Origin: Aeromicrobium erythreum
Lineage (GTDB): Bacteria; Actinomycetota; Actinomycetes; Propionibacteriales; Nocardioidaceae
Assembly (NCBI RefSeq): GCF_001509405.1
Contig: NZ_CP011502.1
Coordinates: 3,038,001-3,102,000 of the forward strand
Length of the DNA stretch: 64,000 nt
Direction of reading: 5' to 3'
The notes beneath the pieces were generated by a model that was given only the letters and a program-made list of their open reading frames with translations, was not told where the DNA came from and ran no database searches. The translations under genes and the position numbers were made by a program. Of this stretch, positions 7,936 through 43,255 are shown one piece after another (within the stretch, counting starts at the first letter, position 1; the number at the start of each line of letters is the position of its first letter).

Positions 7936-7980
7936 GCCCCCAGCGTAGTGCCGCGTCGCGACTCGCCCAGCGACACCGTC

Positions 7981-8468
7981 CGCTGGTCGAGTCGCGGCCA
8001 CGCGCGAGGGACGAGCGCCGTGGCCGCGTATCGAGACCACCCTGCAACGGATCAGCGTGGACCAACTCCCAGCGACCGCCCAGAGTGGTCTCGATACACC
8101 TCCCCTCGCCGGCGCTCGTGGAGGCACTCGACCAGCGAAAGGTTTCGCTGGTCGAGTAGCAGGGACGAGCTTGCGAGGTCCCTGCGTATCGAGACCACCG
8201 GCAACAGCTCAGCGCGGGCCAATCCCCAGCGACCGCCCAGAGTGGTCTCGATACGTCTCCGTCAGCTCCTTCGTCGCGACGTCGACTACTCGACCAGCGA
8301 ACACCTCCGCTGGTCGAGTAGCGGCCACGCGCGAGGAACGAGCGCCGTGGATGCGTATCGAGACCACCCGGCAACGGCTCAGCGTGGCTTGACTCCCAGC
8401 GCCCGCTTGGAATGGTCTCGATACGCCTCCGCCAGCTCCTTCGTCGCAGCGTCGACTACTCGACCGGC
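7981..8468. repeat. Three tandem copies of a nested palindromic repeat
   Basis: This 599-bp gap between genes (7936-8534) is filled mainly by three repeat units starting at 7981, 8146 and 8308. Each unit reads arm A (CGCTGGTCGAGTAG or variant), a variable hairpin, arm B (GTATCGAGACCAC), a core of about 43 nt, then B and A in inverted orientation around a second hairpin. It is the same family as the long array at 24284-27216, including the conserved core. Hairpin stems in these copies are GGCCACG/CGTGGCC and AGGGAC/GTCCCT. The final arm is CTACTCGACCGGCG, one change from consensus. Confidence 0.9.
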
Positions 8469-8534
8469 GGGACGTGGGGGTGATGCTGCTCGCTCGCGCT
8501 GCGGGGGTCGGGGGGCGTGCCTACCGTGGACGAC

Positions 8535-15864: not shown

Positions 15865-16841
15865 GACAGGACGTCCACGACGTGCCCCACCACGGTGACG
15901 GCCGGTGCGCCGATGCCGCTCTCGGCCACGACGTCGGCGATGGTGGCCACGGTCCCGTCGACGCGACGCTGGCTCGGCAGTCCCGCGTCGGCCACGACCG
16001 CAGCGGGGGTGCGGGGGTCGAGACCACCCTGCACGAGCGCCTCCGCGATCGCCGGCAGCGTGCGCACCCCCATGAGCACGACGAGGGTCGTGCCGGTGGA
16101 GGCGAGCGCCTTCCAGTCGACGGTGCAGTCGGGGTGGCCGGGCGGCACGTGGCCTGAGACCACCGTGAACCCCTGCGTGGTGCCGCGGTGGGTCACGGGG
16201 ATGCCGGCGAGGGCCGGCGCCGAGACCGAGGACGTGACGCCCGGCAGGACGCGCACGGGCACGCCGGCGGCGGCGCAGGCCAGCGCCTCCTCGCCACCAC
16301 GGCCGAACACGAACGGGTCGCCGCCCTTGAGCCGGACCACTCGACGGCCCGCCAGGGCGTGCTCGACCAGCAGGTCGTTGATGGTCTCCTGCGGCGTGGA
16401 GCGGCCTCCGGGCACCTTGGCCACGTCGATGACGAGCGCGTCGGCGCGGACGGCGTCGAGCGCCGCCAGGGGCACGAGCCGGTCGGTGACCACGACGTCG
16501 GCCTGGGCGAGCGCGCGCTGGCCGCCGACCGTCATGAGGTCGGGGTCTCCCGGGCCGGCGCCGACGAGCACGACCTCGCCCGGCTGCGGTCGAGGAACAC
16601 CCGTGGGCTCGGCGGCGGGGGTGCCCTGGCCGTCGGGCAGCCGGACCACCACGTCGGACTCGAGCACGTCGTCGAGGACGAGGGCGCGGGCGTGCCAGGA
16701 CACCAGACCTCGGTCGGCGAGGTCCTCGAGGGTGGCGACGAGCTCCTCGGCCACCACCGTGACGGTGTGGCCCTGGGCGAGGTGCGCGGAGACGGCCGCC
16801 GCGGCGCGCAGGCCACCGCCCACGACGAGCACACGACTCAC
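15861..16841 (-). CDS. cobA: Uroporphyrinogen-III C-methyltransferase
   Basis: A 326-residue enzyme that makes precorrin-2 by two S-adenosylmethionine-dependent methylations. The methyltransferase domain starts near residue 89 (GAGPGDPDLMT, 94-104) and includes GGDPFVFGRGGEE and LPGVTSS. The first 70 residues form a short Rossmann-like segment (VLVVGGG) resembling the start of a CysG siroheme-synthase domain but too short to be complete, so it may be vestigial. GTG start overlaps the cobB-cobC fusion stop. Confidence 0.92.
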   Translation of the reverse strand: MSRVLVVGGGLRAAAAVSAHLAQGHTVTVVAEELVATLEDLADRGLVSWHARALVLDDVLESDVVVRLPDGQGTPAAEPTGVPRPQPGEVVLVGAGPGDPDLMTVGGQRALAQADVVVTDRLVPLAALDAVRADALVIDVAKVPGGRSTPQETINDLLVEHALAGRRVVRLKGGDPFVFGRGGEEALACAAAGVPVRVLPGVTSSVSAPALAGIPVTHRGTTQGFTVVSGHVPPGHPDCTVDWKALASTGTTLVVLMGVRTLPAIAEALVQGGLDPRTPAAVVADAGLPSQRRVDGTVATIADVVAESGIGAPAVTVVGHVVDVLS

Positions 16842-19399
16842 GGGCGTGCCTCCTGCAGGGCGATCTCGAGGGCTGCGAGGAAGCGTCGGGCGACGTCGGG
16901 CGCGCGGACGGCGAGGCGCACCCAGCGGTCGTCGAGACCGGGGAACGTGTCGGCGCGGCGCACGGCCCAGCCGGCGGAGCGCAGCGCGCCGTGCACGCCC
17001 GTGCCGACCTCGGCCAGCACGAATGGCGCGGCGGACGGCAGGTGCCGCACGCCGAGGGCGTCGAGGCCGTCGGTGAGCACGGCGCGGTGCTGGGCGACCT
17101 GCGAGGCACGGCGGGCGGCCTCCGCGCGGGCGTCGTCGGAGGTGCAGGCGACGATCGCGGCGGTGGCGTGCGACGACACCGACCACGGGGGCTGCTGGGC
17201 GCGCAGGTCGGCGACCAGGTCGGCGTCGCCCAGGGCGTAGCCGGCGCGGACGCCCGGGATGCTCCAGAGCTTCGTCAGGCTGCGCAGCACGAGCACGCCC
17301 GGCAGGCGTGCGTCGGCGAGCGAGGCCGACTCCCCGGGCACGGCGTCCATGAACGCCTCGTCGACCACGACCACGCGTCCCGGACGGACGAGCGCACGCA
17401 GCGCCCACGCCGGGTGCAGCACCCCGGTCGGGTTGGTCGGGTTGCCGACGACCACGAGGTCGGCGGCGTCGGGGACCGCGTCGGGCTCGAGCGCGAAGTC
17501 GTGCCCCAGGAGCACGTGGCGCGGCTCGTACCCGGCCTGGCGCAGGGCCACGTCGGGCTCGGTGAACTGCGGGTGCACGACCACCGGGTGCTGCCAGGGT
17601 CGGGCCCGCGCGAGCAGCGTGAACGCCTCGGCGGCGCCGGCGGTGGCCAGCACCTCCTCGACGGGTCGGGTGTGCCGGTGCGCCACGGCCGCCTCGGCCT
17701 CCCGCGCGTCGGGGTAGCGGCCGACGTGCTCGAGCGCGCCGCGCAGCGCGTCGTCGAGCCACGGGGGTCGAGGGCCGTCGTGCACGTTCACGGCGAGGTC
17801 GACGAGGCCGTCCGTGGCCTCGACGTCGCCGTGGTGGCGCAGGGGGTCGGTCGCACGACTCTTCGCTGGTCGAGCAGCGGCGCCGTGAGGTACGAACGGG
17901 CGCCGCGTATCGAGACCACTCTCGACGGATCCGTGGACCTCCACGTGCACGGATCCGTTGCCGAGTGGTCTCGATACGTCCGTTCGAGCTCGCTGGCGCT
18001 CGCCGTCCGGACTACTCGACCAGCGAGTCACGGCTGCGGCGAAGCGGGCGGCCATGCGGGGGTGGCCGGCCCAGTGGGTGTGCAGGTAGGAGGCGTGCAG
18101 CGTCGGGCTCGCGAACCCGGCCGGACCGTGCGCGCTCGTCCAGGCGACGGAGAGCCCCGAGGCCGCGTCGTCCGGGCCGAGGTGGGCGGGGGTCACGTGG
18201 GTGCGGTGGAACTCGTGACCGGTCACCCGGCCCCCGGCCGGCGCGAGCAGGTGCTCCTCGGGCGCGACGGCGGTGCGGTAGCCGAGCGTCAGCCGCGGGG
18301 TCATGGCGGCGTCCGCCGGCAGCGCGCCGACCATCGGGGCGCCGTCGAGCGTGCGGCACAGGTACAGCAGACCGGCGCACTCCGCGACGGTCGGCACGCC
18401 CGCGGCGACGGCGTCGGCGATGGCGTGCCGCAGCGGCTCGTTGGCCGAGATGGTGGCGGCGTGCACCTCGGGGAAGCCGCCGCCGAGGTACAGGCCCGAC
18501 GTGCCCTCGGGCAGCGCCTCGTCGTGCAGCGGGTCGAAGACCCGCACGTCGCAGCCGAGCGCGTCGAGCAGCTCGGCCGTCTCGGCGTACCGGAACGTGA
18601 ACGAGCGGCCGCCGGCCACCGCGACGACCCGACGCTGCGACGGCACGACGGTCGTGTGCGGTGCGGTCTCGGCGACCGGGTCCCACGCCTCCCCGGTGAG
18701 CGGCGGCGCGGACTGCGCGATGCGCACGACCTCCTCCAGGTCGACGGCCTTGGCCACCCGCGCGGCGAGCCGGTCGAGCGCGGCCACGGCGTCGTCGCGC
18801 TCCTCGGCCGGCACGAGCCCGAGGTGGCGCGACGGTGCCACGACGCCGTCGTCGCGGTGCACGATGCCGAGCACCGGCACGCCCGTGCCCTCGAGCGCGC
18901 GGACGACCTCGTCGGCGTGGCGGGTGGAGCCGACCTTGTTGAGGATGACGCCGGCCACCCGCACCGACGTGTCGAACGTGACCATGCCGTGCACGAGCGC
19001 GGCGATGGAGCGCGACGCCGACGACACGTCGACCACGAGCACCACCGGGCTGTGCGTGGCGCGGGCGACGTGGGCGGTCGAGGCGTAGCCGTCGGTGCCG
19101 AGCATGCCGTCGTGCAGGCCCATCACGCCCTCGACGACCGCGAGGTCGGAACCGGCGGCACCGTGCAGCAGCAACGGCAGCAGCCGCTCCTCCCCCGCGA
19201 GGTGCGGATCGAGATTGCGGCCGGGCAGGCCCGTGGCCAGCTCGTGGTAGCCGGGGTCGATGTAGTCGGGGCCGACCTTGTGGCCCGAGACGCGGTGGCC
19301 CGACCGCGACAGCGCGGCCATGAGGCCGGTCGCGATGGTCGTCTTCCCGTGGCCCGACGCCGGCGCGGCGACCACCAGGCGGGGCAGGTGCGTGCTCAC
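16838..19399 (-). CDS. cobB-cobC: Fused cobyrinate a,c-diamide synthase (CobB) and L-threonine-phosphate decarboxylase-like (CobC) protein
   Basis: An 853-residue fusion. Residues 1-455 are CobB: P-loop APASGHGKTT (12-21), glutaminase nucleophile Cys341 (VAECAGLL) and His440 (SYLHTHW); it amidates side chains a and c of (hydrogenobyrinic/cobyrinic) acid. Residues about 530-853 are a PLP aminotransferase-fold CobC/CobD-like decarboxylase with GNPTNPTG (652-659), DEAF (680-683) and PLP Lys710 (RSLTKLW), which supplies aminopropanol phosphate. The linker is odd: residues 459-512 are encoded by a complete palindromic repeat element (17864-18025), 162 bp or 54 codons, read without a stop. It sits between cobO (7-bp gap) and cobA (4-nt overlap). 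Confidence 0.92.
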   Translation of the reverse strand: MSTHLPRLVVAAPASGHGKTTIATGLMAALSRSGHRVSGHKVGPDYIDPGYHELATGLPGRNLDPHLAGEERLLPLLLHGAAGSDLAVVEGVMGLHDGMLGTDGYASTAHVARATHSPVVLVVDVSSASRSIAALVHGMVTFDTSVRVAGVILNKVGSTRHADEVVRALEGTGVPVLGIVHRDDGVVAPSRHLGLVPAEERDDAVAALDRLAARVAKAVDLEEVVRIAQSAPPLTGEAWDPVAETAPHTTVVPSQRRVVAVAGGRSFTFRYAETAELLDALGCDVRVFDPLHDEALPEGTSGLYLGGGFPEVHAATISANEPLRHAIADAVAAGVPTVAECAGLLYLCRTLDGAPMVGALPADAAMTPRLTLGYRTAVAPEEHLLAPAGGRVTGHEFHRTHVTPAHLGPDDAASGLSVAWTSAHGPAGFASPTLHASYLHTHWAGHPRMAARFAAAVTRWSSSPDGERQRARTDVSRPLGNGSVHVEVHGSVESGLDTRRPFVPHGAAARPAKSRATDPLRHHGDVEATDGLVDLAVNVHDGPRPPWLDDALRGALEHVGRYPDAREAEAAVAHRHTRPVEEVLATAGAAEAFTLLARARPWQHPVVVHPQFTEPDVALRQAGYEPRHVLLGHDFALEPDAVPDAADLVVVGNPTNPTGVLHPAWALRALVRPGRVVVVDEAFMDAVPGESASLADARLPGVLVLRSLTKLWSIPGVRAGYALGDADLVADLRAQQPPWSVSSHATAAIVACTSDDARAEAARRASQVAQHRAVLTDGLDALGVRHLPSAAPFVLAEVGTGVHGALRSAGWAVRRADTFPGLDDRWVRLAVRAPDVARRFLAALEIALQEARP
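17864..18025. repeat. Palindromic repeat element inside the cobB-cobC coding sequence
   Basis: A full repeat unit of the 24-27 kb array family: arm A (CGCTGGTCGAGCAG), a hairpin with stem CGGCGCC/GGCGCCG, arm B (GTATCGAGACCAC-type), a core that is itself palindromic (ACGGATCCGT twice), then inverted B at 17965-17977, a second hairpin, and inverted arm A ending at 18025. It spans exactly 162 bp. Its core sequence differs from that of the array copies. It encodes the interdomain linker of the CobB-CobC fusion. Confidence 0.92.
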
Positions 19400-22279: not shown

Positions 22280-23509
22280 ATGAGCACCCCCCGTCGCGCG
22301 CCCGGCACCGTCGTCGTCGTGGGCGTCGGGGCCGACGGCTGGGCCGGCCTCGACGCCGCCCGACGCGCCGCGGTCGAGGCCGCCGACGTGCTCCTCGGCG
22401 GCGAGCGGCACCTCGCGCTCGTGCCCGCCGACGTCGGCGCGACCCGCGTGCCCTGGCCGTCGCCCTTGCGCGAGGGCCTGCCCACGCTCCTGGAGGAGCA
22501 CGCTGGACGCCGGGTCGTGGCGCTCGCGTCGGGCGACCCGCTCGTGTCGGGCATCGGCACCACGCTCGTCTCGCTGCTGGGCGCCGACGCCGTGGAGGTG
22601 CTGCCGGGCGTCTCGTCGGTGGCGCTCGCACGTGCCCGCATGCGCTGGTCGGCGGAGTCGTCGGAGGTGGTCACGCTGGTCGGGCGCGACGTGCACCGGC
22701 TCGTCACCCGCCTGCACCCCGGCGGGCGGCTGCTCGTGCTCTGCTCCGACGCCTCGACCCCGGCACAGGTGGCGGACCTGCTCGCCGCGCAGGGCTACGG
22801 CACCAGCACCCTCACCGCGCTCGGCGACCTCGGCTCCGACCACGAGAGCCGCGTCGACGGCGTCGCCGCCACGTGGTCGGCCGACGTCGGCCCGCTCACC
22901 GTGCTCGCCGTGCAGGTCGACGACGGCGCGCGCGTGCTGCCGCTCGTCCCCGGCCTGCCCGACGACGCCTTCGAGCACGACGGCCAGGTGACCAAGCGCG
23001 ACGTCCGCGCGAGCGCCCTCGCCCGGCTCGCACCCACGCCGGGAGCGCTGCTGTGGGACGTCGGGGCGGGCGCCGGGTCCGTCGCCGTCGAGTGGTCGCG
23101 CACCCACCCGTCGTGCCGGGCGGTCGCGGTCGAGCGCGACCCCGAGCGCGCCGAGCGCATCGGCAGGAACGCCAGGACGCTCGGCGTCCCCGACCTGCGC
23201 GTCGTCGCCGGCCGCGCCCCGGAGGCGCTCGCAGGCCTCGACGCCCCCGACGCGGTGTTCGTCGGCGGCGGCGCCACGGTCGACGGCGTCCTCGACGCCT
23301 GCTGGGCGGCCCTGCGGCCGGGCGGTCGGCTCGTCGTCCACGGCGTGACGCTGGAGACCGAGCAGCTGCTGGTCGCGTGGCGCGGCCGGGTCGGCGGCGA
23401 GCTGGTGCGCCTGCTCGTCGAGACCGCCGCCCCGCTGGGCTCGTTCACGTCGTGGACGCCCGCGCGGGCCGTCACGCAGCTGTCCGTCGTCAAGGGGGCG
23501 CAGGAATGA
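22280..23509 (+). CDS. cobL: Precorrin-6Y C5,C15-methyltransferase (decarboxylating)
   Basis: A 409-residue bifunctional methyltransferase. The N-terminal half (about 1-205, VGVGADGWAGLD, ASGDPLVSGIG) is the CbiE-like tetrapyrrole methylase; the C-terminal half (about 225-405) is the CbiT-like part with the SAM motif DVGAGAGSVAVEW. It methylates C5 and C15 and decarboxylates ring C. A TAGCCT box ends 8 nt before the ATG, suggesting a leaderless transcript without a riboswitch of its own. The stop overlaps cobM. Confidence 0.94.
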   Translation: MSTPRRAPGTVVVVGVGADGWAGLDAARRAAVEAADVLLGGERHLALVPADVGATRVPWPSPLREGLPTLLEEHAGRRVVALASGDPLVSGIGTTLVSLLGADAVEVLPGVSSVALARARMRWSAESSEVVTLVGRDVHRLVTRLHPGGRLLVLCSDASTPAQVADLLAAQGYGTSTLTALGDLGSDHESRVDGVAATWSADVGPLTVLAVQVDDGARVLPLVPGLPDDAFEHDGQVTKRDVRASALARLAPTPGALLWDVGAGAGSVAVEWSRTHPSCRAVAVERDPERAERIGRNARTLGVPDLRVVAGRAPEALAGLDAPDAVFVGGGATVDGVLDACWAALRPGGRLVVHGVTLETEQLLVAWRGRVGGELVRLLVETAAPLGSFTSWTPARAVTQLSVVKGAQE

Positions 23510-24273
23510 CCGTGCACGTGGTGGGCGCCGGACCGGGGGCCGCCGACCTGCTCACCGTCCGCGCGGCTCGCCTGCTGGAGCGTGCCGACGTCGTGGTCTA
23601 CGCCGGCACCTACGTCGAGGCCGTGCTGGAGCACTGCCGCCCCGACGCGCGGCTCGTCGACACGCAGAACCTCGACCTCGACCAGATCACTGAGGTCGTC
23701 GTCGACGCGCACCGCGCGGGCCTGGAGGTCGTGCGGCTGTCGTCGGGCGACCCGTCGCTGTACTCGGCGCTGCACGAGCTGACCCGTCGCCTCGACGCCG
23801 CGCAGGTGCCGTGGGACGTGACGCCCGGGGTGCCCGCGTACGCCGCGGCGGCCGCGCGGCTCGGCGTCGAGCTGACCGTGCCCGAGGTGGTGCAGTCGGT
23901 CGTGCTGACGCGCACCCAGGCCCGCTCGACGGCGATGCCGTCGAGCGAGGAGCTGGAGGCGTTCGCCGCCACCGGCGCGACGCTGGCCCTGCACCTGGCG
24001 ATCACCCGCACGCGTCCGCTGGCCGAGCGCCTCGCCGCGGTGCTCGGCGACGACACCCCCGTCGCCGTCGTCGCGAACGCGTCGCAGGAGGCCGAGGTCG
24101 TGCTGCGCGGCACCCTCGCCGACGTCGCCGACCAGGTCGAGGCGGCTGGCCTGCGCCAGGCCGCGGTGATCCTCGTCGGCCCGGCCGTCGCCCGCCCCGA
24201 CGGCGCGGAGTCCTACCTGTACTCCCCCACCCGCGACCGCACCTCCAAGCGCCGCCTCCCGCCGGCCGAGTAG
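23506..24273 (+). CDS. cobM: Precorrin-4 C11-methyltransferase
   Basis: A 255-residue tetrapyrrole methylase converting precorrin-4 to precorrin-5. Motifs include VGAGPGAADLLTVR at the N-terminus, VVYAGTYV, SSGDPSLYSAL and TPGVPAYAAAAARLG. It overlaps cobL by 4 nt and ends just 10 bp before the first unit of the long palindromic repeat array. Confidence 0.95.
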   Translation: MTVHVVGAGPGAADLLTVRAARLLERADVVVYAGTYVEAVLEHCRPDARLVDTQNLDLDQITEVVVDAHRAGLEVVRLSSGDPSLYSALHELTRRLDAAQVPWDVTPGVPAYAAAAARLGVELTVPEVVQSVVLTRTQARSTAMPSSEELEAFAATGATLALHLAITRTRPLAERLAAVLGDDTPVAVVANASQEAEVVLRGTLADVADQVEAAGLRQAAVILVGPAVARPDGAESYLYSPTRDRTSKRRLPPAE

Positions 24274-24283
24274 CCGCCCCTCC

Positions 24284-27216
24284 CGCTGGTCGAGTAGCGG
24301 CACCGGCGACGAAGGAGCCCGGTGCCGCGTATCGAGACCACCCGGCAACAGATCAGCGCGAGCCAACCCCCAGCGACCACCCAGAGTGGTCTCGATACAC
24401 CTCCCCTCGCTGGCGCTCGTGGAGGCACTCGACCAGCGACGCGTTCCGCTGGTCGAGTAGCGGCACCGGCGACGAAGGAGCCCGGTGCCGCGTATCGAGA
24501 CCACCCGGCAACGGATCAGCGCGGGCCAACCCCCAGCGACCACCCAGAGTGGTCTCGATACACCTCCCCTCGCTGGCGCTCGTGGAGGCACTCGACCAGC
24601 GACGCGTTCCGCTGGTCGAGTAGCGGCACCGGCGACGAAAGAGTCCGGTGCCGCCTATCGAGACCACCCGGCAACGGCCCAGCGCGGGCCAACCCCCAGC
24701 GACCACCCAGAGTGGTCTCGATACGCCTCGCCTCGCTGGCGCTCGTGGAGGCACTCGAGCAGCGACGCGTTCCGCTGGTCGAGTAGCAGGGACGAGCTTG
24801 CGAGGTCCCTGCGTATCGAGACCACCCGGCAACAGATCAGCGCGAGCCAACCCCCAGCGACCACCCAGAGTGGTCTCGATACACCTCCCCTCGCTGGCGC
24901 TCGTGGAGGCACTCGACCAGCGACGCGTTCCGCTGGTCGAGTAGCGGCACCGGCGACGAAGGAGCCCGGTGCCGCGTATCGAGACCACCCGGCAACGGCT
25001 CAGCGCGGGCCGACCCCCAGCGCCAGCCCAGAGTGGTCTCGATACGTCCGCCCCAGCTCCTTCGTCGCGGGCCGGGCTACTCGACCAGCGGCGGGTTCCG
25101 CTGGTCGAGTAGCAGGGACGAGCTTGCGAGGTCCCTGCGTATCGAGACCACCCGGCAACAGATCAGCGCGAGCCAACCCCCAGCGACCACCCAGAGTGGT
25201 CTCGATACACCTCCCCTCGCTGGCGCTCGTGGAGGCACTCGACCAGCGACGCGTTCCGCTGGTCGAGTAGCGGCACCGGCGACGAAGGAGCCCGGTGCCG
25301 CGTATCGAGACCACCCGGCAACGGCTCAGCGCGGGCCGACCCCCAGCGCCAGCCCAGAGTGGTCTCGATACGTCCGCCCCTGCTCCTTCGTCGCGGGCCG
25401 GACTACTCGACCAGCGGATCGGATCGCTGGTCGAGTAGCAGGGACGAGCTTGCGAGGTCCCTGCGTATCGAGACCACCCGGCAACGGATCAGCGCGAGCC
25501 AACCCCCAGCGACCACCCAGAGTGGTCTCGATACACCTCCCCTCGCTAGCGCTCGTGGAGGCACTCGACCAGCGGCGGGTTCCGCTGGTCGAGTAGCGGC
25601 ACCGGCAACGAAGGAGCCCGGTGCCGCCTATCGAGACCACCCGGCAACGGCCCAGCGCGGGCCAACCCCCAGCGACCACCCAGAGTGGTCTCGATACGCC
25701 TCGCCTCGCTGGCGCTCGTGGAGGCACTCGACCAGCGACGCGTTCCGCTGGTCGAGTAGCAGGGACGAGCTTGCGAGGTCCCTGCGTATCGAGACCACCC
25801 GGCAACGGATCAGCGCGGGCCTACCCCCAGCGCCAGCCCAGAGTGGTCTCGATACGTCCGCCCCAGCTCCTTCGTCGCGGGCCGGACTACTCGACCAGCG
25901 GATCGGATCGCTGGTCGAGTAGCAGGGACGAGCTTGCGAGGTCCCTGCGTATCGAGACCACCCGGCAACAGATCAGCGCGAGCCAACCCCCAGCGACCAC
26001 CCAGAGTGGTCTCGATACGCCTCCCCTCGCTGGCGCTCGTGGAGGCACTCGACCAGCGACGCGTTCCGCTGGTCGAGTAGCGGCACCGGCGACGAAGGAG
26101 CCCGGTGCCGCGTATCGAGACCACCCGGCAACGGCTCAGCGCGGGCCGACCCCCAGCGCCAGCCCAGAGTGGTCTCGATACGTCCGCCCCAGCTCCTTCG
26201 TCGCGGGCCGGGCTACTCGACCAGCGGCGGGTTCCGCTGGTCGAGTAGCAGGGACGAGCTTGCGAGGTCCCTGCGTATCGAGACCACCCGGCAACAGATC
26301 AGCGCGAGCCAACCCCCAGCGACCACCCAGAGTGGTCTCGATACACCTCCCCTCGCTGGCGCTCGTGGAGGCACTCGACCAGCGACGCGTTCCGCTGGTC
26401 GAGTAGCGGCACCGGCGACGAAGGAGCCCGGTGCCGCGTATCGAGACCACCCGGCAACGGCTCAGCGCGGGCCGACCCCCAGCGCCAGCCCAGAGTGGTC
26501 TCGATACGTCCGCCCCTGCTCCTTCGTCGCGGGCCGGACTACTCGACCAGCGGATCGGATCGCTGGTCGAGTAGCAGGGACGAGCTTGCGAGGTCCCTGC
26601 GTATCGAGACCACCCGGCAACGGATCAGCGCGAGCCAACCCCCAGCGACCACCCAGAGTGGTCTCGATACACCTCCCCTCGCTAGCGCTCGTGGAGGCAC
26701 TCGACCAGCGGCGGGTTCCGCTGGTCGAGTAGCGGCACCGGCAACGAAGGAGCCCGGTGCCGCCTATCGAGACCACCCGGCAACGGCCCAGCGCGGGCCA
26801 ACCCCCAGCGACCACCCAGAGTGGTCTCGATACGCCTCGCCTCGCTGGCGCTCGTGGAGGCACTCGACCAGCGACGCGTTCCGCTGGTCGAGTAGCAGGG
26901 ACGAGCTTGCGAGGTCCCTGCGTATCGAGACCACCCGGCAACGGATCAGCGCGGGCCTACCCCCAGCGCCAGCCCAGAGTGGTCTCGATACGTCCGCCCC
27001 AGCTCCTTCGTCGCGGGCCGGACTACTCGACCAGCGGATCGGATCGCTGGTCGAGTAGCAGGGACGAGCTTGCGAGGTCCCTGCGTATCGAGACCACCCG
27101 GCAACAGATCAGCGCGAGCCAACCCCCAGCGACCACCCAGAGTGGTCTCGATACGCCTCCTCTCGCTGGCGCTCGTGGAGGCACTCGACCAGCGAAACCC
27201 ACCGCTGGTCGAGCAG
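24284..27216. repeat. 18-unit array of nested palindromic repeats
   Basis: The whole gap between cobM and the CBS-domain gene is a repeat array. Eighteen units start at 24284, 24447, 24610, 24773, 24931, 25099, 25257, 25425, 25583, 25746, 25909, 26067, 26235, 26393, 26561, 26719, 26882 and 27045, with periods of 158, 163 or 168 bp; a degenerate arm begins a nineteenth at 27203. Each unit is A (CGCTGGTCGAGTAG), hairpin, B (GTATCGAGACCAC), a conserved core of about 43 nt, inverted B, hairpin, inverted A. Two hairpin types alternate, with stems CGGCACCGG/CCGGTGCCG and AGGGAC/GTCCCT. Units 5-11 (24931-26066) are duplicated almost exactly as units 12-18 (26067-27202). I see no credible gene inside; the open frames there only reflect stop-free repeat sequence. 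Confidence 0.97.
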
Positions 27217-27240
27217 CCGCGACGAGTGCCAACGGTGGGG

Positions 27241-28248
27241 TCAGGCGGGGACCTCGTCGAGGAGACGGCGGAGGACGTCGGCGAGGGTCACGACGCCGAT
27301 GCCGTGCTCGGTGCGGACCACGGCGAGGTGCTGGCTGGTCTCGCGCATGACCGCGAGAGCCTCGTGCACCGGCGTCGCCGGGTCGAGGTGGAACGGCTCG
27401 CGCACCAGGTCGGCCACGCCCTCGTCGGCGTCGCGCACCAGGGTCTCGCGCACGTGCACCACGCCGGCGACCTCGCCGCCGTCGACGACGAGGATCCGCA
27501 GGTGCCCGCTGCGCTCCGCCGCGGCCTGCACGTCGGCGACCGTGCTGCCCGACGGGACTGACGTGGGCACCGCGCCCGGCTTCAGCAGGTCGGCGACGGT
27601 GAGGTCGCGCAGGCCCAGGGCCCGCGACAGCGACGCGGAGTAGCCCGCCTCGAGCGCGCCCGCCTCGGCGGAGTGCTTGACCAGGTGCCGCAGGTCGTCC
27701 GGCGTGGAGCCGCCGGCCACGGTGTCGACCGGGTCGACGCCCACGAGCACGAGGCACCGGTTGGCCGCGCCGTTGAGCATCGTGAGGATCGGCCGGGTGA
27801 ACCACATGAACCCGCGCATCGGGATCGCGAGCATCGTCGCCGACCGCTCCGGGTGGGCGATCGCCCACGACTTCGGCATCATCTCGCCCACCACGAGGTG
27901 CAGGAAGGTCATGACGACCAGCGCGATGACGAACCCGGCGGCGTCGGCCACCCAGTACGGCATGCCCCAGCCCTCGAACAGCGGCGTGAGCGCGTAGTGC
28001 ACGGCCGGCTTCGCGGTTGCGCCGAGCGCCAGGACACACAGCGTGATGCCGAGCTGCGCGCCCGCCAGCAGCACCGTGAGCTCGGAGGAGGAGCGCAGCG
28101 CGGCTCGTGCGGCGCGGCTGTGCGGGGCGGCGTCCTCCAGCCGGTGCCGGCGCGCGGCCAGCAGCGCGAACTCGATCGCGACGAAGAACGCGCTCGCCGC
28201 GATGATCACGACGGTGACCGCGAGGACCACCCAGGGGTTGCTCATCAT
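27241..28248 (-). CDS. CNNM/HlyC-type transporter-like protein with CBS pair
   Basis: A 335-residue protein with an N-terminal CNNM (DUF21) membrane domain of about four segments (1-180) and a C-terminal CBS-domain pair (about 205-330), but no CorC/HlyC domain at the end. The family (CNNM, CorB/CorC, YfjD-like) is linked to magnesium or cobalt export, but bacterial members vary. It overlaps the upstream paralogue by 4 nt, so the two probably form a complex. A cobalt role is tempting given the neighbourhood but unproven. Confidence 0.85.
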   Translation of the reverse strand: MMSNPWVVLAVTVVIIAASAFFVAIEFALLAARRHRLEDAAPHSRAARAALRSSSELTVLLAGAQLGITLCVLALGATAKPAVHYALTPLFEGWGMPYWVADAAGFVIALVVMTFLHLVVGEMMPKSWAIAHPERSATMLAIPMRGFMWFTRPILTMLNGAANRCLVLVGVDPVDTVAGGSTPDDLRHLVKHSAEAGALEAGYSASLSRALGLRDLTVADLLKPGAVPTSVPSGSTVADVQAAAERSGHLRILVVDGGEVAGVVHVRETLVRDADEGVADLVREPFHLDPATPVHEALAVMRETSQHLAVVRTEHGIGVVTLADVLRRLLDEVPA

Positions 28249-29657: not shown

Positions 29658-29827
29658 CGCACGCGCCTCTCCGGGTCGCGGGTGGTCACGGTCTGGGGAC
29701 TTCGACTGGGGTCCATGGCTCTCTCTGTGGAGGGTCGTGATCAGTGGGGGAACGAGCCGGCGGGCCGGCGAGTTCCCGACGTGCCGATCGTCTCAGCGCT
29801 CGACCTCCCGCGCACATCCATGCGTCG

Positions 29828-29877
29828 TGGACACTTCCGGGGCGTTGTGGGCCCCTACGGCGCCCCGGAAGTGTCCA
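29828..29877 (-). terminator. Strong terminator hairpin after cobIJ
   Basis: A perfect 17-bp stem, TGGACACTTCCGGGGCG against CGCCCCGGAAGTGTCCA, with a 16-nt loop, starts 15 bp beyond the cobIJ stop. It should end the long transporter-cobG-cobH-cobIJ transcript and insulate the CNNM genes. Confidence 0.85.
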
Positions 29878-29891
29878 GAAGTCGGGGATGG

Positions 29892-36114: not shown

Positions 36115-36203
36115 CGCGGGTCGCCACCGGGTGTCGGACTCGGGCCATGGCCCCTACCGTTGCGCGTCAGTCCCGGACTTCGACCGGGTTCCCTCACGTG
36201 GCA
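36115..36203 (-). promoter_or_regulatory. Cobalamin riboswitch upstream of the ABC importer operon
   Basis: On the minus strand the region reads GAGGGAACCCGGTCGAAGTC, then the B12-box-like GACTGACGCGCAACGGTAGG and a closing CCGAGTCCGACACCCGG. A TACGGT promoter box lies at 36214-36209. It is a compact aptamer of about 90 nt. It should repress the importer and probably cobG-cobH-cobIJ. It is back-to-back with the plus-strand riboswitch at 36378. Confidence 0.9.
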
Positions 36204-36260
36204 GCCGCACCGTAGCACCCGGCCAGCCGGTCCCCCGCTGGTCCCGTTCGCCGCGCCCCC

Positions 36261-36368
36261 TCGCCGCCCAGGGCCCGGCACCCCCGCCGGGCCTATCCGC
36301 CGCCCAGGGCCCGGCACCCCGCCGCGCCCTGTTCGCCGCCCACGGCCCGGCACCCCCGCCGCTGCTAC
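36261..36368. repeat. 36-bp tandem repeat, three copies, between two riboswitch promoters
   Basis: Three adjacent 36-bp units (36261-36296, 36297-36332, 36333-36368) share the sequence CGCCGCCCAGGGCCCGGCAC (one base differs in unit 3). They fill the space between the two divergent promoters of the back-to-back riboswitches; the third unit runs into the TACGGT box at 36366-36371. They may bind a regulator or simply be slippage products. Confidence 0.85.
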
Positions 36369-36377
36369 GGTGAGCGC

Positions 36378-36540
36378 GCCAGTCACCCTCGCAGAGGGTC
36401 AGGGAACCCGGTGCGACCCCGGGACTGACGCGCAGCGGTGTGGGAGACGTGGCGGGCCACGACGCCACTGGGAGCTCGCTCCTGGGAAGGCGGTCCGTCA
36501 CCGCGACCCCGAGTCCGAAGACCTGCTGGCCGCCACCCCA
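36378..36540 (+). promoter_or_regulatory. Cobalamin riboswitch upstream of the second binding protein
   Basis: The plus strand shows CAGGGAACCCGGTGCGACCC, the B12-box region GACTGACGCGCAGCGGTGTG, an extended peripheral stem, and a closing GAGTCCGAAGACCTG. A TACGGT box at 36366-36371 gives a start near 36378. It should control the binding-protein gene at 36606. Confidence 0.93.
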
Positions 36541-40644: not shown

Positions 40645-43188
40645 ATGACCATCACCGTCATCAAGCGCGACGGCAGCCGAGCGGACTACGACGGCTACGA
40701 GATCGCGAGATCCATCGAGGAGGCCGCCACCGGCCTGCCCGACCAGGTCTCCCGGGCGACGCAGCTGCGCGCCGAGCTGGAGATCACGCTGTTCGACGGC
40801 ATCAGCAGCGAGCAGCTCGACGAGGCCGTCATCGGCGTCGCACTGCAGAACGTCAAGGACGACCCGGCCTTCGACACGATCGCGTCGCGCCTGCTGGTCA
40901 AGACGCTCTACAAGAAGATCTTCGGCGAGGGCGTCACGCGCGAGGAGGTGTACGCCTTCCACGGGCCGGCATTCGTCCGCGCGATCCTGCGCGGCGTCGA
41001 GCTCGGGCTGCTCGACGAGCGGCTGGCCGAGGCCTTCGACCTCGAGCGGCTCGGGTCCGCGCTCGACCCCGACCGCGACGACCTGCTGCGCTACGTCGGC
41101 GCGCAGACCATGCGCAACCGCTACATGATCACCGAGCCCGACGGCACGCCCCTGGAGGTGCCGCAGTTCTTCTGGATGCGCGTGGCGATGGGCCTCGCGC
41201 TGAACGAGGAGGACGCCACGACGGCCGCGCTGTCGTTCTACGACAAGATGTCGCGCCTCGAGTACCTCGCCGCGGGCTCGACGCTCGTCAACGCGGGCAC
41301 CGCGTACAGCCAGCTCTCCAACTGCTTCGTCATGCAGATGGAGGACGACATCGAGCACATCGCCAAGAGCGTCCGCGACGTCATGTGGCTGACGAAGGGC
41401 ACGGGCGGCATCGGCCTCTCGGTCACGCAGCTGCGCGCCGAGGGCTCCCCCATCCGCTCGAACAACACCAGCTCGACCGGTCCGATCCCGTTCATGCACA
41501 CCATCGACTCGACGTTGCGCGCCGTGAGCCGGGGCGGCAAGAAGTTCGGCGCCCTGTGCTTCTACATGGAGAACTGGCACCTCGACTTCGGCCAGTTCCT
41601 CGACCTGCGGCAGAACTCCGGCGACCCCTACCGGCGCACGCGCACGGCCAACACCGCCGTCTGGATCTCCGACGAGTTCATGAAGCGGGTCGAGGCCGAC
41701 GCCGACTGGTACCTGTTCGACCCGCTCGAGGTCGACGACCTGCCGGAGCTGTTCGGCCAGGCGTTCAGCCGCCGCTACGCCGAGTACGCGGCGCAGGCCG
41801 AGCGCGGCGAGATCCGGCACAAGAAGCTGAAGGCGCGCGAGCAGTTCCGCGCCATCCTCACGACGCTGCAGACGACGTCGCACCCGTGGCTCACCTGGAA
41901 GGACACGGTCAACACCCGCGCCCTCAACCAGAACACCGGCACGATCCACCTGTCGAACCTGTGCACCGAGATCTGCCTGCCGCAGGACCGCGAGAACATC
42001 AGCGTCTGCAACCTGGCGTCGATCAACCTCTCCCGGCACGTGGTCGGACGCCGCGGCGACGCACGCGTCGACTGGGACCGGCTCGCCGAGTCCACGCGGC
42101 TCGCCGTCCGCCAGCTCGACAACCTCATCGACATCACGATCAGCTCGGTGCCGGAGTCGGAGCGCTCGAACGAGGAGAACCGCGCCCTCGGGCTCGGCGT
42201 CATGGGCTTCACCGACGTCGTCGAGCGGTTCGGCTGGTCCTACGAGAGCGAGCGCGCCTACGACCTCATGGACGAGCTGATGGAGTTCGTCAGCTGGCAC
42301 GCGATCGACGCCTCCGCCGACCTCGCCCGCGAGCGTGGCGCGTACCCGAACTTCGCCGGGTCGCGCTGGAGCCAGGGCATGGTCCCCTTCGACTCCCTCG
42401 ACCTGCTCGAGGCCGACCGCGGCGTGCCCGTCGACGTCACGCGTCGCTCCCGCCTGGACTGGGACGCGCTGCGCGCCAAGGTCGCGGGAGGTGTCCGCAA
42501 CTCCACGCTGATGGCCATCGCGCCGACCGCGTCGATCGGCCTCGTCGCCGGCACCACTCCGGGGCTGGACCCGCAGTTCAGCCAGATCTTCAGCCGGGCG
42601 ACCGCGGCGGGCAAGTTCCTCGAGGTCAACCGCAACCTCGTCGAGGACCTGCGCGAGCGAGGCCTGTGGGAGTCGCTGCGCGAGGACCTGCTGCGCCACC
42701 AGGGCGACCTGTCGAAGGTCGAGGGCGCGCCCGCCGACCTGGTCGAGATCTACCGGACCAGCTTCCAGCTGTCGCCGTACGCGTTCCTCGAGGTGGCGGC
42801 CCGCGCGCAGAAGTGGATCGACCAGGCGATCAGCCGCAACATCTACCTCGCCAGCCGCGACGTCGGCGACATGGTCGACCTGTACGCGGCCGCGTGGCGG
42901 ATGGGCGTCAAGACGACCTACTACCTGCACATGATGCCGCGGCACACGGCCGAGCAGAGCACCGTCAGGGTCAACAAGGCCGAGACCGTCGCCCCGCGGG
43001 GCGCGACGCCGTCGGGCGGGCGCGGCTTCGGCGCCCGCCGCGGCTTCGGCGCCGCCACCGCAGCCCCGACCCCGGCCCCGGCTCCGGTGGCCGTCGTGCC
43101 GGAGGAGATCCAGGAGCTCGACGTCGTCGACGGGTCCGCCTGCCCGATCGATCCGCAGGAGCGCCTGCAGTGCGAGTCCTGCCAGTAA
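40645..43188 (+). CDS. nrdA: Ribonucleotide reductase class I, large subunit
   Basis: An 847-residue R1 protein that reduces ribonucleoside diphosphates. An N-terminal ATP-cone (about 3-95) implies dATP feedback control. Active-site residues by alignment logic: redox Cys227 and Cys455, Asn438, thiyl Cys440 and Glu442 (NLCTEICLPQ). The radical-path tyrosines lie in TTYYLHMMPRH, and the C-terminal shuttle pair is in CESCQ. A Pro/Ala-rich linker precedes the tail. The ATG at 40645 has a GAGGGG ribosome site; an upstream in-frame start lies in the riboswitch and is rejected. A 58-bp palindromic repeat separates it from nrdB. Confidence 0.95.
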   Translation: MTITVIKRDGSRADYDGYEIARSIEEAATGLPDQVSRATQLRAELEITLFDGISSEQLDEAVIGVALQNVKDDPAFDTIASRLLVKTLYKKIFGEGVTREEVYAFHGPAFVRAILRGVELGLLDERLAEAFDLERLGSALDPDRDDLLRYVGAQTMRNRYMITEPDGTPLEVPQFFWMRVAMGLALNEEDATTAALSFYDKMSRLEYLAAGSTLVNAGTAYSQLSNCFVMQMEDDIEHIAKSVRDVMWLTKGTGGIGLSVTQLRAEGSPIRSNNTSSTGPIPFMHTIDSTLRAVSRGGKKFGALCFYMENWHLDFGQFLDLRQNSGDPYRRTRTANTAVWISDEFMKRVEADADWYLFDPLEVDDLPELFGQAFSRRYAEYAAQAERGEIRHKKLKAREQFRAILTTLQTTSHPWLTWKDTVNTRALNQNTGTIHLSNLCTEICLPQDRENISVCNLASINLSRHVVGRRGDARVDWDRLAESTRLAVRQLDNLIDITISSVPESERSNEENRALGLGVMGFTDVVERFGWSYESERAYDLMDELMEFVSWHAIDASADLARERGAYPNFAGSRWSQGMVPFDSLDLLEADRGVPVDVTRRSRLDWDALRAKVAGGVRNSTLMAIAPTASIGLVAGTTPGLDPQFSQIFSRATAAGKFLEVNRNLVEDLRERGLWESLREDLLRHQGDLSKVEGAPADLVEIYRTSFQLSPYAFLEVAARAQKWIDQAISRNIYLASRDVGDMVDLYAAAWRMGVKTTYYLHMMPRHTAEQSTVRVNKAETVAPRGATPSGGRGFGARRGFGAATAAPTPAPAPVAVVPEEIQELDVVDGSACPIDPQERLQCESCQ

Positions 43189-43197
43189 CCACGGACC

Positions 43198-43255
43198 CGC
43201 TGGTCGAGTAGTCCGTCCCGTGAGGCACGAACAGGGACGGACGTATCGAGACCAC
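43198..43255. repeat. Single half-element of the palindromic repeat between nrdA and nrdB
   Basis: Arm A (CGCTGGTCGAGTAG, 43198-43211), a hairpin with stem TCCGTCCC/GGGACGGA, and arm B (GTATCGAGACCAC, 43243-43255). There is no core and no inverted second half, so it shows the minimal unit of the family. It starts 9 bp after the nrdA stop and may fold in the nrdA-nrdB message. Confidence 0.92.

What the first reader, a model, noticed from the sequence alone, without database searches (positions are those of the whole stretch)
24284..27216. 18-unit array of nested palindromic elements
The gap between cobM and a CBS-domain gene is wholly built of units of 158, 163 or 168 bp. Each carries arms A (CGCTGGTCGAGTAG) and B (GTATCGAGACCAC) around a hairpin, a conserved core of about 43 nt, then the inverted B-hairpin-A. 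Consecutive units also form an A/A hairpin across an 8-nt spacer. It resembles a BIME/REPIN architecture but far longer, and no transposase is near. Whether it is a mobile, structural (nucleoid, gyrase) or RNA element is unknown.
Basis: seen in the sequence. Interest (0 to 1): 0.88.

Follow-up and report, generated by a model that had tools for sequence, protein, structure and literature searches.

The report
Nuclease-linked palindromic repeat array
A long run of near-identical palindromic DNA units between two genes of an Aeromicrobium bacterium belongs to a spreading repeat family that, in several genera, often sits directly in front of a DNA-damage-type nuclease-like gene, which suggests a mobile element driven by a nuclease and not by a transposase.

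Summary
The array is real: 18 units (7 of 163, 7 of 158, 4 of 168 bp) fill window 24284-27202, plus one arm of a 19th. It is one of 29 arrays (4 of them single units) found in the sampled parts of a 3.63-Mb Aeromicrobium genome. The half-element occurs in 35 of 149 family genomes, patchily even within the genus. REP-transposase (Y1_Tnp) was found in 2 of 149, both without the repeat.

The new link is a gene. At 27 DUF222/HNH-like (13E12-type) loci the repeat lies within 500 nt 5' of the gene, against 2 loci with it 3': Aeromicrobium and two other genera. The 23 such genes all carry the PafBC DNA-damage promoter motif, against 8 of 650 control genes. In 37 genus genomes searched for both, the 44-nt core and the matching DUF222 subfamily occur in the same 3. 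One array here is a deletion relic that kept the last 39 nt of that gene. Arrays are oriented by chromosome arm (25 of 29).

Best reading: a REPIN-like element partnered by a damage-induced DUF222/HNH nuclease. The association is shown; that the nuclease acts on the repeat is inferred.

The parts
24284..27202 (+). array of 18 units (158/163/168 bp), unit orientation '+', between convergent cobM and CBS-domain gene
27203..27216 (+). arm A of an incomplete 19th unit
24931..26066 (+). 7-unit block, first copy of a 1136-bp near-exact tandem duplication (second copy 26067-27202)
   Evidence: 6 differences in 1136; 1141 identical consecutive bases at offset 1136
24260..24273 (+). decayed arm A (2 mismatches) that supplies the cobM stop codon
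24447..24460 (+). arm A of unit 2 (example)
24492..24504 (+). arm B of unit 2
24505..24548 (+). 44-nt asymmetric core of unit 2, which sets the orientation
24549..24561 (-). inverted arm B' of unit 2
24588..24601 (-). inverted arm A' of unit 2, followed by the 8-nt spacer 24602-24609
23506..24273 (+). cobM-like gene ending in the decayed arm A
27241..28248 (-).
   Evidence: relatives
7959..8469 (+). second array of the same family, 3 units
17864..18025 (-). single degenerate unit inside a long ORF (16838-19399)
43198..43255 (+). lone half-element starting 9 nt after the stop codon of the gene 40645-43188

Best explanation
The array is a gene-free, tandemly amplified derivative of a mobile palindromic repeat whose partner is a DUF222/HNH-like (13E12-type) nuclease gene. 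SHOWN: the repeat lies just 5' of DUF222 genes in three genera; in the core-type subfamily repeat and gene form one block (last half ends 98-100 nt before the ATG in 9 of 14 copies; homology ends at the stop codon in 10 of 14 copies with a 3' end and a few codons earlier in 4); these genes carry a DNA-damage promoter motif; arrays grow by tandem duplication, occupy or miss a given gene-end site in relatives, can lose the gene, and are oriented by chromosome arm. INFERRED: DNA damage induces the nuclease; it recognises the conserved A/B arms, perhaps in the four-way folded form exposed on one strand at a fork, and nicks or cuts; repair from another array copies units to new or existing sites (homing-like), homogenises gene and arrays within a genome, and lengthens arrays by unequal exchange.
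For: Partner gene: 4 of 4 members of one DUF222 subfamily in G000 have an array 5' of the start, while the other 7 DUF222 genes there have none within 1.5 kb (one weak 26-nt match). G516 5/5 of that subfamily, G478 5/5 judged, G492 4/6, G486 4/4 judged, G459 1/3. Also G500 2/2 seen, G465 1/2, G542 1/3 judged, with different cores. Upstream within 500 nt: 27 loci; downstream: 2. In G000, 4/11 DUF222 against 25 of 572 other genes in array-enriched stretches, Fisher p 0.0013, a link chosen after it was seen; the other genomes are the independent check. Core and close subfamily in the same 3 of 37 genus genomes searched for both. PafBC motif 65/84 against 8/650. Gene copies at shared loci group mainly by genome in a quick tree (SH-aLRT 80, 92, 99) = concerted evolution. 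Deletion relic at 2218384-2218422, 39 nt at 97% to the G516 copy's 3' end, E 4.6e-12. Same cob locus: no unit in G432 and G516, 2 in G478, 18 here. Stems covary: 5.79 of 7 paired against 4.52 (sd 0.074) when 3' sides are shuffled. Orientation 25/29 arrays, 104/200000 permutations.
Against: No cutting, binding or movement was observed. In G481 (all 15 halves) and G443 (24 of 28 halves compared) the nearest DUF222 match is over 2 kb away. In G523 the 6 of 12 DUF222 loci looked at had none; likewise the loci seen in G489, G488, G522, G462, G408, G416 and G498. In 13 loci of G214 and G257 (another family) the repeat has no DUF222-like match within 1.5 kb. In G432 the 66% relative has no repeat. 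25 of the 29 arrays here have no DUF222 gene and only one keeps a detectable remnant, so gene-free copies dominate. The gene's 3' side bears no repeat, unlike a two-ended transposon. The G459 match is a degenerate copy. Pfam's HNH model misses the G000 protein; only sub-threshold hits appear for G486 and G459 relatives (E 0.0014, 0.032). No target-site duplication was established. The three core-bearing genomes are close relatives, so they count as one event.
Confidence: 0.53

Rival explanations
1. Passive satellite: the repeat spreads and lengthens only through host recombination, slippage and gene conversion. DUF222 genes are another repetitive, recombining family that happens to carry or attract a copy in its 5' region.
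For: 25 of 29 arrays lack the gene; array edges start anywhere in the unit and look decayed; near-exact tandem duplication; DUF222 copies in several other genomes also group by genome; some repeat-bearing genomes show no DUF222 beside the repeat.
Against: One-sided association (27 upstream, 2 downstream) in three genera with different cores; core and subfamily share the same 3 of 37 genomes; new sites such as the cob locus need some insertion step.
Confidence: 0.29
2. Chromosome-organising or replication element: oriented arrays serve as polar sites (nucleoid, gyrase, fork or segregation protein) and are kept by selection.
For: Orientation by chromosome arm in 25/29 arrays (23/25 with at least 2 units) and in 79 of the 81 exact cores listed (counted by hand); no clear fit to transcription (array opposite to both flanking genes in 10 of 14 co-directional cases, counted).
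Against: Rare in a fairly close relative (G432: 5 halves) and not found in 114 of 149 family genomes; absent at the same locus in G516 and G432; exceptions at 931, 3056, 3260 and 3403 kb.
Confidence: 0.12
3. REP/REPIN mobilised by a RAYT (Y1_Tnp) transposase.
For: Imperfect palindromes in inverted pairs, intergenic, at gene 3' ends; a GTAG string in arm A next to the variable stem.
Against: Y1_Tnp: nothing over the cut-off in G000 (best E 0.46); 2 of 149 family genomes have it and both have zero repeats.
Confidence: 0.03
4. RNA-level element: the units act as terminators or mRNA-stabilising hairpins.
For: Often located at gene 3' ends; strong fold of the one unit folded; stems covary.
Against: No Rfam match over the gathering score; no T-tracts seen by eye; an array of 18 far exceeds need; absent in relatives at the same gene pair.
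Confidence: 0.07
5. Assembly artefact or collapsed repeat.
For: The near-exact 1136-bp duplication could be a copy-number error.
Against: Units differ in sequence and length; 29 arrays at distinct loci in a one-contig genome; the same family in other assemblies.
Confidence: 0.03

Closest known systems
REP / BIME / REPIN with RAYT transposase (PMC3733652: abstract and passages read; PMC3116915: search listing only)
   Same: Short imperfect palindromes, inverted pairs, intergenic near gene 3' ends, patchy high copy number, a partner gene with the repeat beside it
   Different: No Y1_Tnp; partner is a DUF222/HNH-like gene with the repeat almost only on the 5' side; regular units with a 44-nt core in long tandem arrays; orientation by chromosome arm
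REP13E12 / DUF222-HNH repeats of Mycobacterium tuberculosis (named in PMC10589994, passages read; the original 1999 paper only seen there as a citation)
   Same: Same Pfam family DUF222 with an HNH-like C-terminus; multicopy, repetitive
   Different: There the gene itself is the repeat; a palindromic array in front of it was not found described in the searches
Non-autonomous elements such as MITEs (general knowledge)
   Same: Terminal inverted arms, no coding capacity, many copies
   Different: A parent DDE transposase was not searched for; no target-site duplication established; tandem arrays are the rule here
Homing endonuclease systems (general knowledge)
   Same: HNH-like nuclease gene, proposed spread by cut and repair, gene conversion
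   Different: Target would be the element's own palindromic arms, and gene-free copies dominate

Membership tests
RAYT-associated REP/REPIN | imperfect palindromes arranged as inverted pairs | tested here: met
RAYT-associated REP/REPIN | Y1 transposase (PF01797) in the genome, flanked by the repeat | tested here: not met
   none over cut-off in G000; the 2 of 149 family genomes with it are not among the 35 with the repeat
RAYT-associated REP/REPIN | unpaired GTAG or CGTC tag at one end of the hairpin (PMC3733652 abstract) | tested here: inconclusive
   arm A holds GTAG before the variable stem, but its role is unknown
DUF222 / 13E12 HNH family (partner gene) | DUF222 domain | tested here: met
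   PF02720 E 2.6e-17 over cut-off; 11 genes in G000
DUF222 / 13E12 HNH family (partner gene) | HNH nuclease motif | tested here: inconclusive
   C..C-DH-N-HH pattern seen by eye; PF01844 sub-threshold for G486 and G459 relatives, none for the G000 piece
DUF222 / 13E12 HNH family (partner gene) | DNA-damage-inducible expression | tested here: inconclusive
   promoter motif only: 65 of 84 against 8 of 650 (copies within a genome are not independent); induction itself not testable here
MITE | target-site duplication | tested here: inconclusive
   cob locus empty and filled sites compared by eye; no clear duplication
CRISPR array | unique spacers between repeats and cas genes | tested here: not met
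   cores are near-identical, not unique; cas genes not searched
Integron attC array | attC boxes with cassettes and an IntI integrase | not tested
   units too short for gene cassettes; integrase not searched
Rfam RNA family | covariance-model match | tested here: not met
   0 matches at gathering score in window 24000-27600

The most novel reading that the evidence does not exclude
A new class of bacterial mobile element: a DNA-damage-induced DUF222/HNH nuclease (PafBC or SOS promoter) that copies its own palindromic A/B repeat around the chromosome, probably through a single-stranded or nicked form at the replication fork, which leaves gene-free arrays mostly oriented against the fork. It would do for Actinobacteria what RAYT/REPIN does in Gammaproteobacteria, with an unrelated enzyme, and would give the 13E12 family a function.
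Probability: 0.37. Interest if true: 0.88.

Novelty: new variant of a known kind. Interest (0 to 1): 0.75.

Why it matters
REP-like palindromes without a RAYT are known (PMC3733652 says so for CGTC REPs), and DUF222/13E12 genes are a multicopy family whose Pfam entry is still 'unknown function'. A recurrent link between the two, with damage-type promoters, makes both questions directly testable: one nuclease, one candidate target. If true, DNA damage would drive repeat expansion and rearrangement at gene ends, and the oriented arrays would be substrates for recombination between chromosome arms.

Tried and rejected
RAYT partner: rejected. Plasmid or phage carriage: no match among plasmid or phage records by blastn; 17 stretches of viral contigs hold the exact half pattern once each, and tblastn with six DUF222 proteins (E 1e-5) found nothing in them; I take them as chromosomal flanks, untested. 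Rfam: none. PADLOC and NCBIfam: nothing useful. PDB by sequence: none. GC3-skew change-point is best at 2.52 Mb but broad (2.32 Mb is 1.45 log units worse), and the called-gene strand balance shifts near 1.8 Mb, so 'chromosome arm' rests on dnaA-like genes at the contig start (recognised by eye) plus the single orientation switch between 2.22 and 2.42 Mb. Transcription as the cause of orientation: 10 of 14 co-directional cases opposite, not convincing (counted). Remnants of the gene beside the other arrays: only one found. The tree is the quick one; the careful search did not finish. Papers with the arm sequences: none except a chance hit in a mite paper; other searches.

Rows dropped: 7 of 95 DUF222 sequences with under 500 nt of upstream DNA and no repeat were left out of the tree and the association counts. 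One search used 84 genes with enough upstream DNA. One search covers only the 30 loci that handed out for 16 genomes; five of them repeat genes, and L366 and L388 have too little upstream DNA to judge. In the G443 comparison only 24 of 28 halves and 8 of 10 DUF222 matches (contig C1) were compared. Lists are capped; whole counts were taken where printed.

Full report
What is there. The intergenic gap between convergent cobM (23506-24273) and a CBS-domain gene (27241-28248) holds 18 complete units and one further arm. Each unit is A-hairpin-B-core-B'-hairpin-A'. The variable stems covary: 131 different inner segments from the sampled parts of this genome pair at 5.79 of 7 positions, against 4.52 (sd 0.074) when 3' sides are dealt out anew; 51 segments from other genomes give 5.49 against 4.43 (sd 0.109). 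The one unit folded forms a four-way junction on one strand, z -4.97. Units 12-18 copy units 5-11 with 6 differences in 1136 bases, 5 of them in the last spacer, so the array has grown recently unless the assembly is wrong there.

Where else. The window is 3038001-3102000 of a 3.63-Mb single-contig genome. Named relatives put it in Aeromicrobium (95% identity of the CBS protein to Aeromicrobium sp. CnD17-E). Arm A occurs 133+112 times and the half-element 153+142 times. In stretches taken around listed matches I found 29 arrays with 1 to 18 units, 25 of them with two or more. Across the phylum 6 of 396 genomes match; three hold several copies (this genome, G214, G257) and three a single loose match. 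Across the family 35 of 149 match; in the genus the number runs from 0 to 198, and 295 in this genome. No match was found in plasmid or phage records.

It moves or is lost. At the cobM-CBS site G432 (88% CBS protein) has only a short gap, G516 (95%) has a different palindrome of about 100 nt, G478 (94%) has 2 units and this genome has 18 (flanks read by eye). In G478 and here the cobM reading frame ends in an arm A, so the element supplies the stop codon.

No RAYT. PF01797 gives nothing over its cut-off here (best E 0.46). Only 2 of 149 family genomes have it, and both lack the repeat.

A partner gene. The two arrays at 931 and 994 kb lie 190 nt before two similar 435-aa genes, one of which was scanned and has a DUF222 domain (both match PF02720). 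The genome has 11 DUF222 genes; four form a subfamily (91-95% to the query), and all four have an array 5' of the start; the other seven do not. The subfamily recurs at 86-90% only in G516 and G478 among 149 family genomes, with a 66% relative in G432. I fetched 80 DUF222 regions from 24 genomes. With four own copies and 11 further loci this made 95 sequences: 23 have a half-element within 500 nt 5', 65 do not, 7 could not be judged. By genome: G000 4/4 of the subfamily, G516 5/5 of the subfamily (2 other DUF222 genes without), G478 5/5 judged, G492 4/6, G486 4/4 judged. The 20 regions from nine genomes without the repeat were all negative; one has a loose match 1007 nt away. A second look at 30 DUF222 loci of 16 genomes added G500 (2 of 2 seen), G465 (1 of 2) and G542 (1 of 3 judged), with different cores and tandem A-B units; G459 is 1 of 3, and that one is degenerate; the other loci of that list, from G443, G481, G523, G489, G488, G522, G408, G462, G416, G498, G471 and G214, had none. 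In G481 and G443 the nearest half compared lies over 2 kb from any DUF222 match. Downstream copies within 500 nt: two loci, L297 and L310. In this genome 4 of 11 DUF222 genes have a half within 500 nt of the start, against 25 of 572 other genes in stretches chosen for their arrays (p 0.0013); the link was noticed first and tested after, so the weight rests on the other genomes.

Block structure. In G000, G516 and G478 the last half, a partial core, a shared leader and the gene follow each other in constant order; the half ends 98-100 nt before the start in 9 of 14 copies, and in the rest it is decayed, missed by the motif or rearranged. Of 14 copies with a 3' end, 10 stop at the same codon and the flank differs between loci from there; in o1858, L283, L288 and L289 the likeness ends a few codons earlier and the frame runs on. 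Five loci are shared between genomes by their downstream flanks (read by eye), yet in the quick tree the G000 copies (SH-aLRT 80), the G516 copies (99) and four of five G478 copies (92) group by genome, a sign of conversion between copies. At a hisA-like locus G516 and G478 carry array plus gene, while this genome has a 3-unit array (2218406-2218898) fused to the last 39 nt of the gene (2218384-2218422): an array without a gene can be a relic of one with a gene. No other array here showed such a remnant. The 44-nt core is found in 3 of 49 genus genomes (147, 62 and 40 copies, up to 2 mismatches); 37 of the 49 were also searched for the gene, and the close subfamily is in the same three. They are near relatives, so this is one event, not three.

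Damage promoters. PMC8151990 (passages read) gives the PafBC motif as TGTCGG-N10-TA-N3-T with TGTCAG as a variant, and lists five putative HNH endonucleases among RecA-dependent mitomycin genes of M. tuberculosis. The motif, with spacing 9-11 allowed, lies upstream of 65 of 84 DUF222 genes and of all 23 repeat-associated ones, against 8 of 650 called genes of this genome; SOS-like sites (2 mismatches allowed) stand before 10 of 84 against 13 of 650. DUF222 genes without the repeat have the motif too, so it marks the family, not the pairing. PMC8223512 and PMC6789036 (passages read) describe the pathway.

Orientation. Within each of the 29 arrays all units point the same way. Of the 29, 25 fit a single switch of direction between the origin (dnaA-like genes at the contig start) and a point in the range tested; 104 of 200000 label shuffles do as well, and 12 of 200000 for the 25 arrays with two or more units (23 fit). 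Of 81 exact cores listed for this genome, 79 fit (counted by hand). The switch lies between 2.22 and 2.42 Mb. GC3 skew favours 2.52 Mb but weakly. With the origin at zero, these units point against fork movement on both arms. This is expected if one strand is the active form at forks, but selection on chromosome layout would look alike.

How it most likely works. Shown: repeat, partner gene, promoter motif, tandem growth, site presence and absence, signs of conversion, polarity. Inferred: the nuclease recognises the arms and starts the copying. The strongest objection is that most arrays have no gene, and some repeat-bearing genomes show no adjacent DUF222; RAYT/REPIN systems show the same (recalled), with a few autonomous copies serving many others in trans.

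Known or new. [quoted passage not shown] its text has no hit for the Actinobacteria terms I tried. PMC10589994 (passages) notes REP13E12/HNH endonuclease/DUF222 as a repetitive category. None of the listings showed a paper that links DUF222 genes to palindromic arrays; I read listings, not all the papers, and subscription journals are mostly not held. I rate it a new variant of a known kind; it would be a new class if the nuclease proves to be the mover.

Noticed in passing
window 16838-19399 with unit at 17864-18025: A degenerate unit lies in frame inside an 853-aa ORF that reads like a cobyrinate synthase followed by a CobC-like aminotransferase (my reading, not searched); the repeat would encode the linker.
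   Followed up: no
L139 / L205, between CBS gene and cobM: Aeromicrobium sp. CnD17-E carries a different palindrome of about 100 nt at the same site, so the site may attract more than one repeat type.
   Followed up: no
L133, G000:C1:2309562-2309902: Four tandem half-elements of one orientation at about 95-bp spacing, without the usual inverted partner: a second array type.
   Followed up: no
L326, L327, L329, L354, L372 upstream of DUF222: Some DUF222 genes have SOS-box-like sites (near TCGAAC-N4-GTTCGA) in place of the PafBC motif.
   Followed up: partly
L092, G000:C1:3402837-3403498: Units with a doubled core (86-87 nt) in an array of the minority orientation.
   Followed up: no
G486 and G492 contig ends (for example L298, L299, L304, L307): Several draft contigs end inside DUF222 copies, which suggests recent expansion of near-identical copies that broke the assembly.
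   Followed up: partly
window 29815-29890: A 37-nt inverted repeat (76% complementary) with 2 nt between the arms, in a gap between genes.
   Followed up: no
window 36249-36362: Tandem 36-bp repeat, 3.2 copies, inside a gap with a further inverted repeat (36151-36444).
   Followed up: no
L063-L087 (G214 and G257, another family of the class): The same arms occur as inverted dyads with 9-36 nt between the halves in 9 of 13 loci looked at, with no DUF222-like match within 1.5 kb.
   Followed up: partly
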